From positions 2,381-66,380 of the forward strand of contig JAAXHH010000011.1 of assembly GCA_012270975.1 (NCBI GenBank): DNA of 64,000 nt, given 5' to 3'. The stretch is from Candidatus Latescibacterota bacterium. GTDB lineage: Bacteria > JAAXHH01. The notes beneath the pieces are model-generated. The model was given only the letters and a program-made list of their open reading frames with translations. It did no database searches and was not told where the DNA came from. Below are positions 56,271-64,000 of this stretch, one piece after another; the stretch's first letter is position 1; the number at the start of each line of letters is the position of its first letter. The position numbers and the translations under genes are program-made.

Positions 56271-56677
56271 TTGCTTGGATTTTTGAGACATAGTGCGTGT
56301 TCTGTCATGCGTGTAGCGCATATAGCGTTCTGTTGTCCCGGACGAAGTTGTCTCATTCGGACAGGACTTAGTTCAAAGCCATGCTTGCAAGACTGCCCGT
56401 ACATCGATCCATTAGCGATCAATCAGTGCCTGAGTTTTCCAGCCGAGTTTCGTGTGTATCGCCCTGCTGTGACGTACACGTGGATCGCAAGCGCGTTTCG
56501 TCTGAATCCCGGGGCCGAATTCGCGGCTGCATTAGACTACAGCCCCTCCGTATTAGTTGTAACTCAATATTTATCAATAAGTTACGGATACATTTTCGGT
56601 TCCAAAGTAGATATTCGCTCATTACGTGGAATCTGCCAGTACAAGCGTTCGATGCCGGCCCATACACGGGAGGTTGC

Positions 56678-57700
56678 ATGGGATCATCTGGAAAGAATCG
56701 CCATAGTTCATCTGAGCAAGTCGAGAGTTATCATGAGCATTCTGCCTTTGAACCGATTGTTCACAAGAGCGACGCTATGAAACGTATCTGTTCGATGACC
56801 TTTCAGTATGCGCGGACGGATTTGCCGGTGTTGATAACGGGAGAAACCGGGACGGGGAAAGAACTGATCGCCAGAGCGATTCATGCGGCAAGCAGCCGTG
56901 CCGACCAACCCTTTGTCGTCGTGGATTGTGCCGCGCTGCCCGAGACGCTGATGGGAAATGAACTCTTCGGTCATGAGAGGGGTGCCTACACGGGCGCCGA
57001 CAGGAAGCAGCCGGGTCTGTTCGCCGCAGCGAATAAAGGCACGATCTTCCTCGACGAAATCGGCGAACTGCCCCGGAATGCACAGGCCGTATTACTCCGG
57101 GTACTGCAGGATGGATCATATCGGCCCTATGGTGGTGTCCGACAAATGAAAACGGATGTTCGAGTAATCGCAGCTACCAATCGAGATCTGCAGGAGGCTG
57201 TAGTTCAAGGGTCCTTCAGGCTGGATCTCTACCATCGAATCGGGAGCGCGGTTCTCCAACTGTCCGCGCTTCGGTCACGCACGGACGATATACCGCTGCT
57301 CGTCCGGCATTTCATGAGGAAATTGACCCCATCTGGAGTTCAGTCGTTGGAATTGTCACCAACAGTGATGCGCAGATTGCTTCAACACCGATGGGAGGGT
57401 AACGTGAGAGAACTTGAGAACAGGCTCAGATCGGCGATTGCGCTGGCGTCGAACGGTCAGATCACCGTTGAGGACCTCTTTCCTGAAGAAGTTGAGGGCA
57501 CAGACCGCAGTAACGAAATACCATCGCTCCGAACCGTCAGAACAGGTATGTCAAAGGATACGGAAGGTCAATATCTTGAGAACATTTTACGAGAGACGCA
57601 CGGAAACGTATCGAAGGCTGCGGAAATCGTCGGAGTACATCGCACACATCTGTATAAACTATTACGTAGTCATGGGATATCTCCGTCTTATTATCGGTGA
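56678..57700 (+). CDS. PspF-like sigma-54-dependent transcriptional activator without sensory domain
   Basis: About 340 aa. AAA+ domain: Walker A GETGTGKE (55-62), the sigma-54 contact loop GAYTGAD (102-108), Walker B GTIFLDE (121-127), then LPRNAQAVLLRVLQDG and DVRVIAATNRDL. The C-terminal Fis-type helix-turn-helix (LRETHGNVSKAAEIVGVHRT, then HLYKLLRSHGI) binds enhancer DNA. Fewer than 30 residues precede the AAA+ domain, so there is no receiver, GAF or PAS sensor. That is the PspF arrangement, in which a partner protein or the level of the activator sets activity. Start at the ATG 56678 with GGGAGG four bases upstream; frame sequence before it looks non-coding. A sigma-54 promoter lies 295 bases after the stop, making the thioredoxin/peptide operon the obvious target. 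Confidence 0.9.
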   Translation: MGSSGKNRHSSSEQVESYHEHSAFEPIVHKSDAMKRICSMTFQYARTDLPVLITGETGTGKELIARAIHAASSRADQPFVVVDCAALPETLMGNELFGHERGAYTGADRKQPGLFAAANKGTIFLDEIGELPRNAQAVLLRVLQDGSYRPYGGVRQMKTDVRVIAATNRDLQEAVVQGSFRLDLYHRIGSAVLQLSALRSRTDDIPLLVRHFMRKLTPSGVQSLELSPTVMRRLLQHRWEGNVRELENRLRSAIALASNGQITVEDLFPEEVEGTDRSNEIPSLRTVRTGMSKDTEGQYLENILRETHGNVSKAAEIVGVHRTHLYKLLRSHGISPSYYR

Positions 57701-57862: not shown

Positions 57863-57994
57863 ATTGTGTATCAACGTCTAGAACACCAGGTACCATTCCT
57901 TCAATTTCTGTTGCTTCGATAAACATCACAAAATCAAGTATTTCAACAAGATACCTCCTTTTCATTAGCAAAATCAAAATTGGTAAGTACACGT

Positions 57995-58009
57995 TGGCAT
58001 GATATCTGC
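57995..58009 (+). promoter_or_regulatory. Sigma-54 (-24/-12) promoter
   Basis: TGGCAT-N5-CTGC with the invariant GG and GC separated by exactly ten bases; consensus is TGGCAC-N5-TTGC. Predicted start near 58021, giving a leader of about 155 bases before the thioredoxin-like gene. The upstream neighbour is a sigma-54 activator gene, which supports it. Confidence 0.7.
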
Positions 58010-58177: not shown

Positions 58178-58768
58178 ATGTCTTCAGTGAGTACAAAATC
58201 ACGACTATTCCTGTATCTCGCCATCACTGTCCTCGTTGTCTTAAACTGCGCCTTTCTATGGCGCGATTATCAGAAAGAGCTGGACCGGCGAGATCTTCTG
58301 CAGAGGCTATACCGTACTCAGGTGGAAGTTCGCGTGCTGAAGTCGGAGAAGATGTTCGGCGCGCCTTTTGTTCCCGAATTCCGTACGGTTGACTTGGACG
58401 GTGAGCCTGCAGCACTGCCGAATTTCGGTAAGGGGCAGTTGCTCATCTTGTTTTTCCAGCCGTCGCACTGCGGGTCCTGCCTCGAGGCGATGTCTTCATT
58501 TGAAGCGGTGATCGGGGACAATGTCCCGGTAATCGGCGTTGTCCAGGCAAAGTTGCCCGAGGAAATTATGCCGACCTTGGATGCGTACGAGTACGAATTC
58601 CCGGTGTATCTGGCCGTCGATTCCCCCTTCGATTTGTCAATTTCTTCCCCTTACAGCGTATTAATCAATGAACTCGGGATAGTGTTACACATGTCAGCCA
58701 TTGATCCCAATATCCGATCGGTGGAGGAACTTATCTCGGAATTTGCGCAGATACTGGAAAGGAGGTAG
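58178..58768 (+). CDS. Membrane-anchored thioredoxin-like protein (CGSC), partner of the Cys-rich peptides
   Basis: 196 aa. One N-terminal helix (FLYLAITVLVVLNCAFLW) anchors it, followed by a short coiled region and a TlpA/AhpC-type thioredoxin fold. The redox motif is C98-G-S-C101 in FFQPSHCGSCLEAMSSF. VYLAVDSPFDLS and SVLINELGIVLH are the usual later strands, though the cis-proline position is not the classic one. It probably faces the periplasm and reduces, oxidises or isomerises disulfides. The next two genes encode exported peptides with six Cys each, so they are its likely substrates. An AAGGAG site lies rather far (14 bases) from the ATG. Confidence 0.8.
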   Translation: MSSVSTKSRLFLYLAITVLVVLNCAFLWRDYQKELDRRDLLQRLYRTQVEVRVLKSEKMFGAPFVPEFRTVDLDGEPAALPNFGKGQLLILFFQPSHCGSCLEAMSSFEAVIGDNVPVIGVVQAKLPEEIMPTLDAYEYEFPVYLAVDSPFDLSISSPYSVLINELGIVLHMSAIDPNIRSVEELISEFAQILERR

Positions 58769-58835
58769 CCGACTGCGCAACCTGGTATTAGGTTCTGCTG
58801 GTTTCTATCTGTTTTCATCTTAGGAGGATGAACAA

Positions 58836-59075
58836 ATGACACGATCGATTCGCAGACTCGGTTTAGTAGGAGCAACGCTCGCGATTGTACTTATCGCCGG
58901 GCTCAATTTTGCGGCGTTAGGGCAGTGGAATGTCCCCTATATTGGGGTGCAGGAGGCGTACGCTTGGGGACATTGCGCTGTTGGCATTTGCAATGGTTAC
59001 GGCGGCTGTTTTTTTGTTGGGTGGTGGCAGGTTCTAGGCCCTTGTGAGTGGTGGACTACGTGTTACTACTGTTAA
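58836..59075 (+). CDS. Exported six-cysteine, Trp-rich peptide precursor, copy 1
   Basis: 79 aa. N-terminus MTRSIRRLG followed by a hydrophobic helix (residues 8-28) is a signal or anchor. Possible cleavages are after G29 (ALG-Q) or after A43 (AYA-W), the latter a perfect AxA site that would leave 36 residues. The C-terminal part has Cys at 47, 52, 58, 70, 76 and 79 and five Trp after residue 43, and ends in Cys. AGGAGG eight bases before the ATG. No RiPP maturase or bacteriocin ABC transporter is adjacent, but a thioredoxin-like protein precedes it. The layout (helix, ~12-residue linker, QEAYA-like motif, Cys-rich tail) is loosely like Bacteroidetes NVEALA peptides; I do not claim homology. 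Function unknown: toxin, signal or surface peptide are all possible. Confidence 0.8.
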   Translation: MTRSIRRLGLVGATLAIVLIAGLNFAALGQWNVPYIGVQEAYAWGHCAVGICNGYGGCFFVGWWQVLGPCEWWTTCYYC

Positions 59076-59215
59076 CAATTCGCTTTGTTTCGTGTAATGT
59101 GAGCCTGAATTGTATCGCGAGTTAACATGAAGGACCACTGAGTTATTGGAAGGCATGAACCCCTGATGTGAGGCGTTGCTAGTTTCTTCCGTTTTCATCT
59201 AAGGAGGATGAACGA

Positions 59216-59455
59216 ATGACACAATCGATTCGCAGACTCGGTTTAGTAGGAGCAACGCTCGCGATTGTACTTATCGCCGGGCTCAATTTCGCGGCGTTAG
59301 GGCAGTGGGATGTCCTCTATATTGGGGTGCAGGAGGCGTACGCTTGGGGACATTGCGCTGTTGGCATTTGCAATGGTTACGTTGGATGTTATTTTGTTGG
59401 GTGGTGGCAGGTTCTAGGCCCTTGTGAGTGGTGGACTATGTGTTACTCCTGTTAA
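59216..59455 (+). CDS. Exported six-cysteine, Trp-rich peptide precursor, copy 2
   Basis: 79 aa paralogue of the preceding gene with all six Cys and all Trp kept. Differences: R3Q, N32D, P34L, G56V, F59Y, T75M and Y78S, seven amino-acid changes against only two silent ones (F25, G57 codons). The signal part is nearly identical and most changes lie in the exported part, which hints at diversifying selection, though numbers are small. AGGAGG with the same spacing before the ATG. Co-transcribed with copy 1 from the sigma-54 promoter, as no other promoter is apparent. Confidence 0.8.
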   Translation: MTQSIRRLGLVGATLAIVLIAGLNFAALGQWDVLYIGVQEAYAWGHCAVGICNGYVGCYFVGWWQVLGPCEWWTMCYSC

Positions 59456-59591
59456 TAATTCGCTTTGTTTCGTGTATTGTTGTGAGCCTGAATTGTATCG
59501 CGAGTTAACATGAAGGCCACTGAGTTATTGGAAGGCATGAACCCCTGATGTGAGGCGTTGCTAGTTTCTTCTGTTTTCATCTTAGGAGGAT

Positions 59592-59800
59592 AGTCGACGG
59601 CCACGATCGATCCATAGACTTGATCTTCGTGGTAAAACGCCTCCGGTCAAGCAGTTCGGCCCGTTCTTCAGTGGTCAGGCCGGCTTCGCACCTGCCTTGA
59701 TCCTGGTCGACCTGCTTGACCCAGTTGCGGATGGCTCGGTCGGTGAGATCGAACTCCTTGGCCAGCACTTCTCCGGCTGTGGCCGGCACGAACCAGGTTG
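59592..59800 (-). mobile_element. Fragment of an IS3-family transposase orfA
   Basis: On the minus strand, bases 59789-59637 encode VLAKEFDLTDRAIRNWVKQ, then DQDQGRCEAGLTTEERAELL, the helix-turn-helix and leucine-zipper start of IS3-type OrfA (HTH_Tnp_1). The N-terminus, the rest of OrfA, OrfB and terminal repeats are missing. Its left border abuts the truncated third peptide unit at 59591, so an insertion and later deletion most likely destroyed that copy. Confidence 0.75.
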
Positions 59801-59835
59801 ACCATTTAGGCGCACCGCAAGGGTTTAGTACATTT

Positions 59836-61035
59836 ATGGTATTCAGAGTTGCCTTGTCGCTGATTTTGTTGTTCGAAATCGTAAGTTTCCGGATTTCGTC
59901 AGCCATTGCCCAGACCAGCACCCTGCCAGATTCACTGAGTGAAACGGAATTCGGCGCGTTGATTCAGGATCTGTCCGGAGTAGGTAGAGACTTCCACACG
60001 GACAACTTCACTTCCAACGAGTCTACGTATCTGAATCCTCTGCCGATCCTGCGCAGACACGATCTTTCCCGCGGGGTTTATGTGGGTGTGGGACCTGAAC
60101 AGAACTTTTCATATATTGGCGCAATCCAACCTACAATGGCTTTCATCGTGGATATCCGCCGCAACAACATGCTGCAGCATCTCATGTACAAAGCTCTGTT
60201 CGCTCTGTCTGACACGCGGGCGGTTTTCCTTTCGAAACTGTTAAGCAAGCCCCTCTATGAAGACCTGCCGCGTATCAACAGGCTGTTTCGACGGACACCG
60301 GCCTGGATTGCGGGCGGCCGAGAGGCCTCGATCGGAGAACTGGTCGAATACTTCGACAGCGTCGCCCCGGATCCGGACCTGTACGACGAGAATATCAAAC
60401 AGATCAAGGAATTGGTAAAGGTACACGGGGTCGATAATGCCAACGACATGAGTGCATTAGAATACATTTACCGTGCGTTCTACCAACGCCAGCTCGATAT
60501 TCGCTACGATCTGCTCGGAAGCGACGGGAAACAACTACGAGAGGCTGCGGATCTTCGCGATCTTCTGCAGGCAACAACCACGGACGGAGAACCGGCCAGC
60601 TTCTTGGCCAACGATCATATCTTTAGCTATCTGAGAGAGATGCAAAGCCGTAATCTCATCGTGCCCGTGGTAGGCGATTTCGGTGGAGACCATGCTCTTC
60701 GTGCTATCGCAGAATATGTCAAGGCGCACGAGGCGACCATTTCCGTATTCTACACGTCCAATGTGGAGAGCTATCTTATTGCGGAAGGATATACCAGGTT
60801 TTTAAGGTACATCGCAAACATCGAACGTTTCCCGATTGACGAAACAAGTGTTTTCATCAGATCTTTCGCTAACGACAGCGATCCTCTGATGAAGTCCCAT
60901 CCAGATCGCTCTGGTAATCATCCCTTCACCACTTTGGTGCAACCCATTTCGATCCTACTTGAAGACAAACCTTGGGATGAATTGAGGCGATTCGATCTTT
61001 ACCGCTATATTGTAACCACCGGGAACCTGAAATGA
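59836..61035 (+). CDS. LIC_10091-like secreted protein
   Basis: About 399 aa with a signal peptide (VFRVALSLILLFEIVSF and a SSAIAQ cleavage). The body matches the LIC_10091-type family: SNESTYLNPLPILRR, then GVYVGVGPEQNFSYIGAIQP and AFIVDIRRNNMLQHLMYKALF, and a Rossmann-like VVGDFGGDHALRAIAEYV with ISVFYTSNVESYL. Family function is unknown; the second half is methyltransferase-like in layout. ATG at 59836 chosen because it begins the signal peptide; a frame from 59716 would run through the IS fragment. Its stop overlaps the TonB-domain gene by four bases (ATGA). Confidence 0.78.
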   Translation: MVFRVALSLILLFEIVSFRISSAIAQTSTLPDSLSETEFGALIQDLSGVGRDFHTDNFTSNESTYLNPLPILRRHDLSRGVYVGVGPEQNFSYIGAIQPTMAFIVDIRRNNMLQHLMYKALFALSDTRAVFLSKLLSKPLYEDLPRINRLFRRTPAWIAGGREASIGELVEYFDSVAPDPDLYDENIKQIKELVKVHGVDNANDMSALEYIYRAFYQRQLDIRYDLLGSDGKQLREAADLRDLLQATTTDGEPASFLANDHIFSYLREMQSRNLIVPVVGDFGGDHALRAIAEYVKAHEATISVFYTSNVESYLIAEGYTRFLRYIANIERFPIDETSVFIRSFANDSDPLMKSHPDRSGNHPFTTLVQPISILLEDKPWDELRRFDLYRYIVTTGNLK

Positions 61036-61547
61036 CGAATATGCATTTCGTAAAATCGAAGGAAAATCTGATCATGATCGCTATTCGCAAGGTTCCAATG
61101 TTATCATTGGTCCTTTCTGTAGCCGGCTGTGGCAATGATGGTCAACCACCCCAGGATGGCCAACCACCTCCGGCAGTCCAGGCGAGTCAGCTAGGGCGAC
61201 CGGACCAGGCAGCCGATCAGAAAGCTGGTATTTACTGGGCCACTACTGTGGACACGAGAGCAAAGCTTGTTTATATTCCTACTATGCCCGATGGCGACGA
61301 TCTCAATTTCGATGGCGTCACAGTGATTCAAGTCGTGGTAGGTACTGATGGCATAGTGGAAACGGCTTTTGTCGAGGGAGCGTCGGGTCGCGTTTCTGTG
61401 GACTCTCTGACGCTGGATATTGTTCGAAAAACGATCTGGACGCCGGCAATACATGACGGTGCCGTCGTAAAGATGCGCCAGTCGCTACCGATTATTTACA
61501 GGAAATCATTACAAACCCCTGGCGAGGAGACCGTCACCGAAGAATGA
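61032..61547 (+). CDS. TonB C-terminal domain lipoprotein
   Basis: 171 aa. Lipobox-like VAGC (around Cys33) after a hydrophobic segment, a repeated QPPQDGQPPP linker, then a TonB/TolA-type C-terminal domain: DGVTVIQVVVGTDGIVETAFV, SVDSLTLDIVRKTIWTPAIHDG and VKMRQSLPIIYR. Such stand-alone TonB-box domains are common in this type of genome as energy-transducer-like or envelope proteins. No ExbB/ExbD nearby. Translationally coupled to the LIC_10091-like gene. Confidence 0.75.
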   Translation: MTNMHFVKSKENLIMIAIRKVPMLSLVLSVAGCGNDGQPPQDGQPPPAVQASQLGRPDQAADQKAGIYWATTVDTRAKLVYIPTMPDGDDLNFDGVTVIQVVVGTDGIVETAFVEGASGRVSVDSLTLDIVRKTIWTPAIHDGAVVKMRQSLPIIYRKSLQTPGEETVTEE

Positions 61548-61614
61548 AGTGTAACGCGAGACACCCTGATCGACCAGTAAACGGACGTACCTTGCCGTAG
61601 AGTGCGCAGATCGT

Positions 61615-64000
61615 ATGTTCTCCCACCACCTCACGATCACCCTAAGGTCCTTCCTCAAACAAAGATCCCATACCATCATCAACGTCATGGGGCTGGCCAT
61701 CGCCATGGCCGCGTGCGTACTCACGCTGTTGTACATAAAGGACGAATGGACCTACGATACGCACCACAAACACGCTCCGCAGGTCTTCCGGCTGATCCAT
61801 GGCAACAACACGCGCATGGCGGGCGCGGCGGGCTCCGCGCTGAAACAGCACTTCCCGGAGGTCGCAAGTGCCGTGCGCATGCGGGCGACGCGGGCCATAT
61901 GGCTCATACGGTTCGGCGACCGCGAGTTCTACGAAGACCGCGTCTACTGGACCGAGCCTTCGCTGTTCGACGTATTCACCATACCCCTGCTCAAGGGAAA
62001 CCCCGATTCCGCGTTGGAGGGGCAGTACAGAGCGGTCATCTCGGAGTCCATGGCCAAGAAGTACTTCGGCGACGCGGACCCCATGGGCGAGGTCATGCGC
62101 CTGGACAACACGTACAGCTTTACCATCACGGGCATCATGGAGGATTTCCCGAGCCACACGCATTTCACCGCGGATATGTTCCTGTCGTTTGGGCCCGAGT
62201 TGAACTTCATAGACAACTGGTGGAGTGCGACCTACTATACTTACCTGCGTCTGAACGATCAGCGTCTCGCTCCTGACCTGACGTCAAAGTTCCAGTCTTA
62301 TTTCGACACCGAAATCAAGCCCGCGAACCCGCAGAGCATCCAGGATTACCGGTTTGCCCTTCAGCCGTTGGCCTCGATACACCTGCGTTCCAATCTCCTC
62401 AACGAACTCGAATCGAACAGCAGCATGGCGTACCTTTACACCCTCATGACGGGGGCCGTTTTCCTGCTGCTGATCGCCTGCATCAACTTCATCAATCTGT
62501 CCATGGTCCAGTCGACCGCCAAGGCGAAGGAAGTGGGCCTCATGAAGGTGTTTGGCGCGGACCGTTCCCGTATCGTCATGCAGTATCTGAGCGGGTCCGT
62601 ACTGATCTCGGGTCTGGTACTCTTACTGGCCGTTCTGCTGGCCCGCCTTTCGCTTCCGGCCTTCAACGCCGTGACCGGGAAGGCGCTGTCCATGGACCTG
62701 ATGCAGCATCTCGACGTCTGGCTTGGCCTTATCGCCATCTCGGTACTGGCGGGCGTGTTGTCGGGGAGTTTTCCGGCCATGGTCCTGTCCGGATATCGCC
62801 CGATGGACGCCCTGAGCCGCCGATTAAGCCAGGCGATCGACTATCCTTTCGTAAAACGGGTGCTCATCACCGTGCAGTTCACCCTCTCCGTGATCCTGAT
62901 CACCAGCACGGGGGTGGTGTACAATCAGTTGCAGTACATGATGAATGAACCTCCTGGTTTCGAAAAGTCTGACGTGGTGGTTGCCCCCCTGATCTCGGGA
63001 TTCTTCGTGGATACCGATACACAGGAATCCTCCGAGGGTTCCCAACAGTTTAGCATGAGATCGTCCGAGGGATTCCAGAACGAGTTGCTTCAGTCACCGT
63101 ATATCCAGGGTGTTTCCCTGTCGGACTACGTACCCGGACTCGCGCCGGGGCGGGGAATGATCGGGGAAACCATGGTGCGCAGAGGAGACGGCAGCGATAT
63201 CCCCGCGTCCACGTCCATCCGCATAGTGAACGTCGAACACGATTTCTTCGAGACCCTGGGCATGAATCTGATCCTGGGGACGAATCTGAAGCCACGAGAT
63301 ATGAGGGTCTTCAATCCGTTCGCCGTTCTTGAGATCGTGCTGAACGAAACGGCGGTGCGGCATCTGGGATGGACTTCCCCCGAAGAGGCCCTGGACAAGC
63401 CGGTGGAACTGGTCCACCCACGGTTTGTAAACCGAGGCAGGGTCGTCGGTGTGGTCCAGGACACCCACTTTCGTTCCCTCTACCAGCCCGTAGAACCCAT
63501 GGTGTTCTTAAGCAGTACTTTCGGGGAACACATGAGCGTTCGATTGCAGCCGGGCAGTACGTCCTCCGCGCTTGAGTACCTCAATGGCGTCTGGCAATCT
63601 CACTATCCGGAGATTCCGCTTTTCTATTCCTTTCTCGAAGACGACATAGACCGACTGTATCTGCCCGAAGAGCGACTTGGCACGCTCCTCGGAATATGCG
63701 CGTTGCTAGCCATTGTTCTGACCTTCCTTGGGCTGTTCAACCTGGTCTCCCTTACCATGCACCAGCGGACGAGGGAAATCGGCGTTCGCAAGATACTCGG
63801 CTCGACCCGGCCGCAGCTTGTTCAGCTATTGTCGAAAGAGTTCGTGGTCATGGCTGTCGCGGGGAGTTTTACCGCCTGGCCGATCGTCTACTTCGTCATG
63901 GACAGCTGGCTGCGGGATTTCGCCTATCGCACGGCGCCCAGCCCGGCGCTCTTCTTCCTGGCGGGCCTGGCCGTACTGGCCATCGCGACGGCCACGGTCG
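61615..64000 (+). CDS. MacB/FtsX-type ABC transporter permease (3' partial at window end)
   Basis: At least 795 codons, open to the window edge. Same architecture as the permease at 9712: N-terminal LRSFLKQRSHTIINVMGLAI, a MacB-like periplasmic domain (SEPSLFDVFTIPLLKGNP-type segment, SESMAKKYFGDADPMG), FtsX helices with KEVGLMKVFGADRSRIV, a second periplasmic domain (DFFETLGMNLILGTN), and C-terminal helices with REIGVRKILGSTRPQLV. Nearly complete by comparison, lacking only the last few residues. It belongs to the putative-peptide or lipoprotein-export permeases that need a separate ATPase. Its position after the peptide cluster could be chance. Confidence 0.88.
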   Translation, partial: MFSHHLTITLRSFLKQRSHTIINVMGLAIAMAACVLTLLYIKDEWTYDTHHKHAPQVFRLIHGNNTRMAGAAGSALKQHFPEVASAVRMRATRAIWLIRFGDREFYEDRVYWTEPSLFDVFTIPLLKGNPDSALEGQYRAVISESMAKKYFGDADPMGEVMRLDNTYSFTITGIMEDFPSHTHFTADMFLSFGPELNFIDNWWSATYYTYLRLNDQRLAPDLTSKFQSYFDTEIKPANPQSIQDYRFALQPLASIHLRSNLLNELESNSSMAYLYTLMTGAVFLLLIACINFINLSMVQSTAKAKEVGLMKVFGADRSRIVMQYLSGSVLISGLVLLLAVLLARLSLPAFNAVTGKALSMDLMQHLDVWLGLIAISVLAGVLSGSFPAMVLSGYRPMDALSRRLSQAIDYPFVKRVLITVQFTLSVILITSTGVVYNQLQYMMNEPPGFEKSDVVVAPLISGFFVDTDTQESSEGSQQFSMRSSEGFQNELLQSPYIQGVSLSDYVPGLAPGRGMIGETMVRRGDGSDIPASTSIRIVNVEHDFFETLGMNLILGTNLKPRDMRVFNPFAVLEIVLNETAVRHLGWTSPEEALDKPVELVHPRFVNRGRVVGVVQDTHFRSLYQPVEPMVFLSSTFGEHMSVRLQPGSTSSALEYLNGVWQSHYPEIPLFYSFLEDDIDRLYLPEERLGTLLGICALLAIVLTFLGLFNLVSLTMHQRTREIGVRKILGSTRPQLVQLLSKEFVVMAVAGSFTAWPIVYFVMDSWLRDFAYRTAPSPALFFLAGLAVLAIATATV

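What the first reader, a model, noticed from the sequence alone, without database searches (positions are those of the whole stretch)
58797..59600. Tandem array of exported six-Cys, Trp-rich peptides
Two 79-aa precursors with a shared signal helix, a perfect AYA cleavage-type site, six invariant cysteines and a C-terminal Cys are repeated every 380 bp. A third unit existed. Seven of nine coding differences between copies are amino-acid changes, mostly in the exported part. I do not recognise this peptide family, and no known RiPP maturation gene is adjacent.
Basis: partly seen in the sequence, partly recalled or inferred. Interest (0 to 1): 0.85.

Follow-up and report, generated by a model that had tools for sequence, protein, structure and literature searches.

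The report
Hypervariable exported six-cysteine peptide cassette
A few uncultured Latescibacterota bacteria carry a compact gene cassette that appears to make tiny exported peptides held together by cysteine bridges; the export part stays nearly unchanged while the exported part changes very fast, as is typical of molecules used in contests or signalling between organisms.

Summary
Two 79-aa ORFs (58836-59075, 59216-59455) lie in a 380-bp tandem repeat followed by a truncated third unit. Homologues with six Cys occur in two other genomes of the same genus (Candidatus Latescibacterota) and nowhere else among 384 sampled genomes; there is no Pfam, NCBIfam, PHROG or PDB match. Between two species the leader DNA differs by 5-7% but the mature part by 41% (p~1e-10), inside a cassette otherwise mostly 1-5% diverged. 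The peptide gene always follows a membrane-anchored TlpA/ResA-like protein with CxxC and precedes an exported DUF7790 protein, a TonB_C lipoprotein and a MacB/FtsX-type permease. A paralogue (own genome and five sisters) fuses the TlpA-like and TonB_C parts, has lost all cysteines, and has no peptide beside it. Best reading: a secreted, disulfide-stapled peptide served by its own thiol-disulfide oxidoreductase, working like sublancin/BdbB but unrelated in sequence. Export, disulfides and activity are inferred; antagonism versus signalling is open.

The parts
56381..57700 (+). sigma-54 activator (AAA+ with Fis-type HTH); possible regulator of the cassette in G000 and G008
   Evidence: Pfam Sigma54_activat E 1.2e-64, HTH_8 3.5e-8; orthologue upstream in G008, absent in G011
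57994..58009 (+). putative sigma-54 promoter TTGGCATGATATCTGC (GG-N10-GC)
   Evidence: pattern conserved in G008, absent in G011; one of 2 sites in 64 kb, shuffled mean 2.5: suggestive only
58178..58768 (+). membrane-anchored TlpA/ResA-like thiol-disulfide oxidoreductase, CxxC = CGSC
   Evidence: AhpC-TSA above cut-off; profile matches ResA structures E 0.0016; CxxC in all three peptide loci
58822..58827 (+). ribosome-binding site AGGAGG of copy 1
   Evidence: sequence
58836..59075 (+). six-Cys precursor peptide, copy 1 (79 aa)
59216..59455 (+). six-Cys precursor peptide, copy 2 (79 aa)
59517..59620 (+). truncated remnant of a further copy (spacer, RBS and ruined start)
   Evidence: same remnant in G008
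59600..59835 (-). fragment resembling a transposase HTH (IS remnant), below family cut-offs
   Evidence: PF01527 E 0.17 here, 0.018 in G008; shared with G008
59836..61035 (+). exported DUF7790 / LIC_10091-like protein, methyltransferase-like Rossmann fold
   Evidence: Pfam DUF7790 3.2e-33; model pLDDT 83, Foldseek 6ulo 4e-13
61032..61547 (+). TonB_C-domain lipoprotein
   Evidence: TonB_C 1.9e-6 above cut-off; 47-52% identical to the C-terminal half of the TlpA-TonB_C fusion protein
61615..64000 (+). MacB/FtsX-type permease without its own ATPase (continues to about 64059)
   Evidence: MacB_PCD 8.5e-33, FtsX 7.2e-21, two stretches each

Best explanation
The array encodes precursors of small exported peptides that are locked by (probably three) disulfides. 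A conserved hydrophobic leader plus the motif QW[DN]V[PL]Y-G---A-A takes the peptide across the inner membrane; the leader is removed; the neighbouring membrane-anchored TlpA-like CxxC protein forms or proof-reads the disulfides; the TonB_C lipoprotein and MacB/FtsX permease act later, in release from or resistance to the peptide. The mature part evolves very fast on a fixed Cys and aromatic scaffold, with gene duplication and loss, which fits a secreted effector aimed at other organisms (bacteriocin-like) or a strain-specific signal. Shown: ORFs, array, six Cys in all homologues, fixed gene order, hypervariable mature part, CxxC/peptide association. Inferred: export, cleavage, disulfides, dependence on TlpA, roles of TonB_C and MacB, biological activity.
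For: Leader DNA 5-7% versus mature DNA 41% diverged between G000 and G008, p~1e-10; mature dN 0.70-0.72 against leader 0.06 and DUF7790 0.008. Cassette otherwise mostly 1-5% diverged while flanks are 10-25%. Same order TlpA-peptide-DUF7790-TonB_C-FtsX in G000, G008 and, in different surroundings, G011. CxxC present in the 3 TlpA-like proteins with a peptide next door, no Cys at all in the 6 paralogues without one. Paralogue fuses TlpA-like and TonB_C parts, linking the two functionally. TonB_C and TlpA evolve with dN/dS near 1 while DUF7790 is near 0.15.
Against: No expression, mass or activity data. Only three independent loci, so the CxxC/peptide association may be a single historical event. 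Within the mature part alone dN>dS is weak (p 0.03 for copy 2, 0.24 for copy 1); part of the excess may come from exchange with a diverged array member. No dedicated protease or ABC ATPase in the cassette. AlphaFold model of the peptide is poor (pLDDT 57).
Confidence: 0.55

Rival explanations
1. The peptide is not released but is a periplasmic or membrane-tethered redox or metal-binding partner of the TlpA-like / TonB_C / FMN-protein machinery (a thiol relay).
For: Obligate neighbour of a CxxC TlpA-like protein; FMN_bind and ApbE genes follow in G000, G008 and G006; unusually conserved hydrophobic leader could be a retained anchor.
Against: A redox partner should keep its sequence; the mature part is the fastest changing piece of the locus. 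FMN_bind/ApbE are absent beside the G011 cassette. No CxxCH or known metal motif.
Confidence: 0.2
2. A member or cousin of the Bacteroidota NVEALA-type exported small peptides (PF14055), which share a hydrophobic leader, a spacer, an xxEAxA motif and a Cys-rich tail.
For: Overall architecture: leader, spacer, VQEAYA/VQEAHA, Cys-rich tail (NVEALA architecture from memory, a lead only).
Against: No Pfam hit up to E 10 for the peptide; the NVEALA profile finds nothing in G000, G008 or G011 while it does ring in the Bacteroides control.
Confidence: 0.1
3. Structural role: a small Cys/aromatic-rich cell-envelope protein whose diversity reflects phage or predator escape rather than attack.
For: Hypervariable exposed part, patchy presence, duplication and decay.
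Against: No envelope anchor seen in the mature part; linked to oxidoreductase and permease rather than to envelope polymers.
Confidence: 0.12

Closest known systems
Sublancin / glycocin operons (sunA-sunT-bdbA-sunS-bdbB, Bacillus subtilis SPbeta)
   Same: Small exported Cys-rich peptide encoded with its own thiol-disulfide oxidoreductase (BdbB) and a transporter (PMC4336743)
   Different: No sequence similarity found; Gram-negative-type organism; hydrophobic Sec-like leader rather than a double-glycine leader; no glycosyltransferase; MacB/FtsX-type permease instead of a peptidase-containing ABC transporter
NVEALA peptide family, PF14055 (Bacteroidota)
   Same: Hydrophobic leader, spacer, EAxA motif, Cys in the tail (from memory)
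   Different: Profile does not match the peptides or these genomes
ResA/TlpA thiol-disulfide oxidoreductases
   Same: The upstream protein has the thioredoxin-like domain, membrane anchor and CxxC
   Different: Weak similarity; paired with a TonB_C partner and with a peptide gene; paralogue without Cys is fused to TonB_C
Methylamine dehydrogenase maturation (MauD with a Cys/Trp-rich small subunit)
   Same: Thioredoxin-like protein serving a disulfide-rich exported small protein (from memory)
   Different: No catalytic large subunit, no MauE or MauG homologue in the cassette

Membership tests
RiPP / bacteriocin with dedicated disulfide oxidoreductase (sublancin-like in function) | Short precursor with conserved leader and variable core | tested here: met
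   Leader 5-7% versus core 41% DNA divergence
RiPP / bacteriocin with dedicated disulfide oxidoreductase (sublancin-like in function) | Thiol-disulfide oxidoreductase gene in the operon | tested here: met
   TlpA/ResA-like protein with CxxC in all three loci
RiPP / bacteriocin with dedicated disulfide oxidoreductase (sublancin-like in function) | Dedicated peptidase-transporter or modifying enzyme | tested here: not met
   None recognised; MacB/FtsX permease without ATPase, DUF7790 of unknown activity. Not filed as a RiPP
RiPP / bacteriocin with dedicated disulfide oxidoreductase (sublancin-like in function) | Peptide released, disulfide-bonded and active | not testable with these tools
   needs expression and assay
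NVEALA (PF14055) | Match to the family profile | tested here: not met
   No match to E 10; 0 of 384 genomes, control positive
TlpA/ResA family (upstream protein) | Thioredoxin-like domain with CxxC, membrane anchor | tested here: met
MacB/FtsX permeases (downstream protein) | MacB_PCD and FtsX domains | tested here: met

The most novel reading that the evidence does not exclude
A new class of secreted disulfide-stapled peptides matured and handled by a so far undescribed TlpA-TonB_C-MacB-type envelope system, spread as a mobile cassette and diversifying in an arms race.
Probability: 0.35. Interest if true: 0.75.

Novelty: new variant of a known kind. Interest (0 to 1): 0.6.

Why it matters
If right, it adds a peptide family from an uncultured phylum whose secreted products are almost unknown, with a precursor short enough to synthesise or express directly. 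It also gives a testable rule, CxxC TlpA plus TonB_C plus MacB-type permease, for finding other such peptides that annotation pipelines skip because they are too short and too variable, and a handle on what TonB_C lipoproteins and orphan MacB-type permeases do.

Tried and rejected
Searches for further homologues: own family, phylum and 384 relatives, genome contigs, viral contigs and plasmids gave nothing beyond G008 and G011; the G010 hit (E 0.58) is part of a transmembrane protein and was dropped. NVEALA membership rejected. Positive selection between the two window copies rejected. AlphaFold of the peptide is too poor to use. Methylase-type modification by DUF7790 considered: its predicted fold is methyltransferase-like, but the protein appears exported, where no SAM would be available, and it has many paralogues without peptides, so it is not taken as a peptide-modifying enzyme. 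Literature searches for a TlpA/MacB/small-peptide system found none. G006 has the downstream part (96% DUF7790) but its contig ends just at the repeat region, so presence of the peptide there cannot be judged.

Full report
The window belongs to a 4.06-Mb, 160-contig genome whose relative with the same locus is titled Candidatus Latescibacterota. ORFs at 58836-59075 and 59216-59455 encode 79-aa proteins, each with a good ribosome-binding site, in a 380-bp direct repeat; a third unit survives only as spacer, RBS and a ruined start. They differ at nine codons, seven of them non-synonymous, four of the seven in the mature part. By itself this pair shows no positive selection.

Homologues. A profile of the family finds only G000 (two copies), G008 (one) and G011 (one) among the 16 held genomes of the phylum and among 384 relatives; there is nothing in viral contigs or plasmids, and no Pfam, NCBIfam, PHROG or PDB family. 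All copies have six Cys after a conserved leader, and all end in or one residue after a Cys. Cys spacing varies: C4C5C11C5C2C in the window copies, C5C4C11C5C2C in G008, C4C14C10C3C2C in G011. Trp in the window is often Tyr in G008, so aromatic character is kept rather than Trp. Invariant leader residues continue past the hydrophobic helix (Q30, W31, V33, Y35, G37, A41, A43), which suggests a propeptide recognition motif rather than a plain signal peptide. A generic scan for this kind of ORF in the window and about 240 kb of related loci, partly overlapping, returned only this family.

Evolution. Compared with G008, most of the cassette from about 58200 to 62000 is 1-5% diverged whereas the flanks are 10-25%, so the cassette was recently exchanged or homogenised between the two lineages. 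Within it the leader differs at 7-9 of 129 bases, but the mature part at 44-45 of 108 (p~1e-10). Mature dN is 0.70-0.72 and dS 0.25-0.35; neighbouring TlpA and DUF7790 have dS 0.05. The non-synonymous excess within the mature part alone is modest (p 0.03 and 0.24), so the data fit either strong diversifying selection or retention of different members of an older, diverged array. G008 has one copy plus the same truncated remnant and the same transposase-like fragment, so duplication and loss are under way.

Gene context. The order TlpA-like, peptide(s), DUF7790, TonB_C lipoprotein, MacB/FtsX permease is the same in G000, G008 and G011, although G011 has quite different surroundings, which points to a moving cassette. 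In G000, G008 and G006 the permease is followed by FMN_bind and ApbE proteins, but not in G011. A sigma-54 activator gene and a GG-N10-GC promoter-like site precede the cassette in G000 and G008.

The TlpA-like protein is the key neighbour. It has a membrane anchor and a thioredoxin-like domain closest to ResA, with CGSC, CGAC or CASC in the three peptide loci. Seven genomes of the genus carry traces of a paralogue: intact in G000, G002, G003, G005, G009 and G010, broken in G008. The intact paralogues are about 350-aa ORFs with no cysteine at all, and the CxxC is replaced by a sequence such as HFPGS. The C-terminal half is a TonB_C domain, checked by Pfam in G005 and G000 and by BLAST in G005, G000 and G010, 47-52% identical to the cassette's separate TonB_C lipoprotein. 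An ABC ATPase gene of MacB type lies beside it by sequence appearance (not run against Pfam). No peptide is found next to it. So the same two parts occur fused without cysteines and without peptide, or split with an active CxxC and with the peptide between them. This links TlpA, TonB_C and probably MacB-type transport, and associates the thiol chemistry with the peptide. It is one phylogenetic contrast, not many independent ones.

Mechanism proposed. Export by the hydrophobic leader, removal of the leader near G29 or A43, disulfide formation by the TlpA-like protein, and later handling by TonB_C and the permease. The sublancin operon, where the thiol-disulfide oxidoreductase BdbB is encoded with the peptide (PMC4336743), is the nearest functional parallel, but no sequence similarity was found and the defining transporter-peptidase is absent, so this is not filed as a member. 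Fast change on a fixed Cys scaffold favours an outward-acting molecule; a bacteriocin-like role is somewhat more likely than signalling, and neither is shown.

DUF7790 is modelled well (pLDDT 83) and matches the uncharacterised Leptospira structure 6ulo, with weak methyltransferase-like matches. It is strongly conserved and has paralogues in all 14 family genomes, so it is probably not specific to the peptide.

Noticed in passing
G000:C85 (L022 8289-9401), G005 (L024), G010 (L021): TlpA-like domain without any Cys fused to a TonB_C domain, conserved in the genus and sitting divergently beside an apparent MacB-type ABC ATPase gene.
   Followed up: partly
window 58200-62000 versus L006: Sharp drop of divergence between two species (1-5% against 10-25% in the flanks), a recombination or transfer tract centred on the DUF7790 gene.
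   Followed up: partly
G008:C49 about 231464-231676 (L027): The TlpA-TonB_C fusion gene is broken in G008 (N-terminal part missing, frame changes), while its peptide cassette is intact.
   Followed up: partly
L029 14482-16197 (just past the window end): FMN_bind protein (also with a CPVC motif) and ApbE flavin transferase follow the permease in G000, G008 and G006, suggesting a periplasmic flavin electron-transfer pair.
   Followed up: no
G006:C3 (L054): Contig ends just upstream of DUF7790, within the shared fragment next to the repeat array; the array probably broke the assembly, so short-read MAGs may hide further copies.
   Followed up: partly
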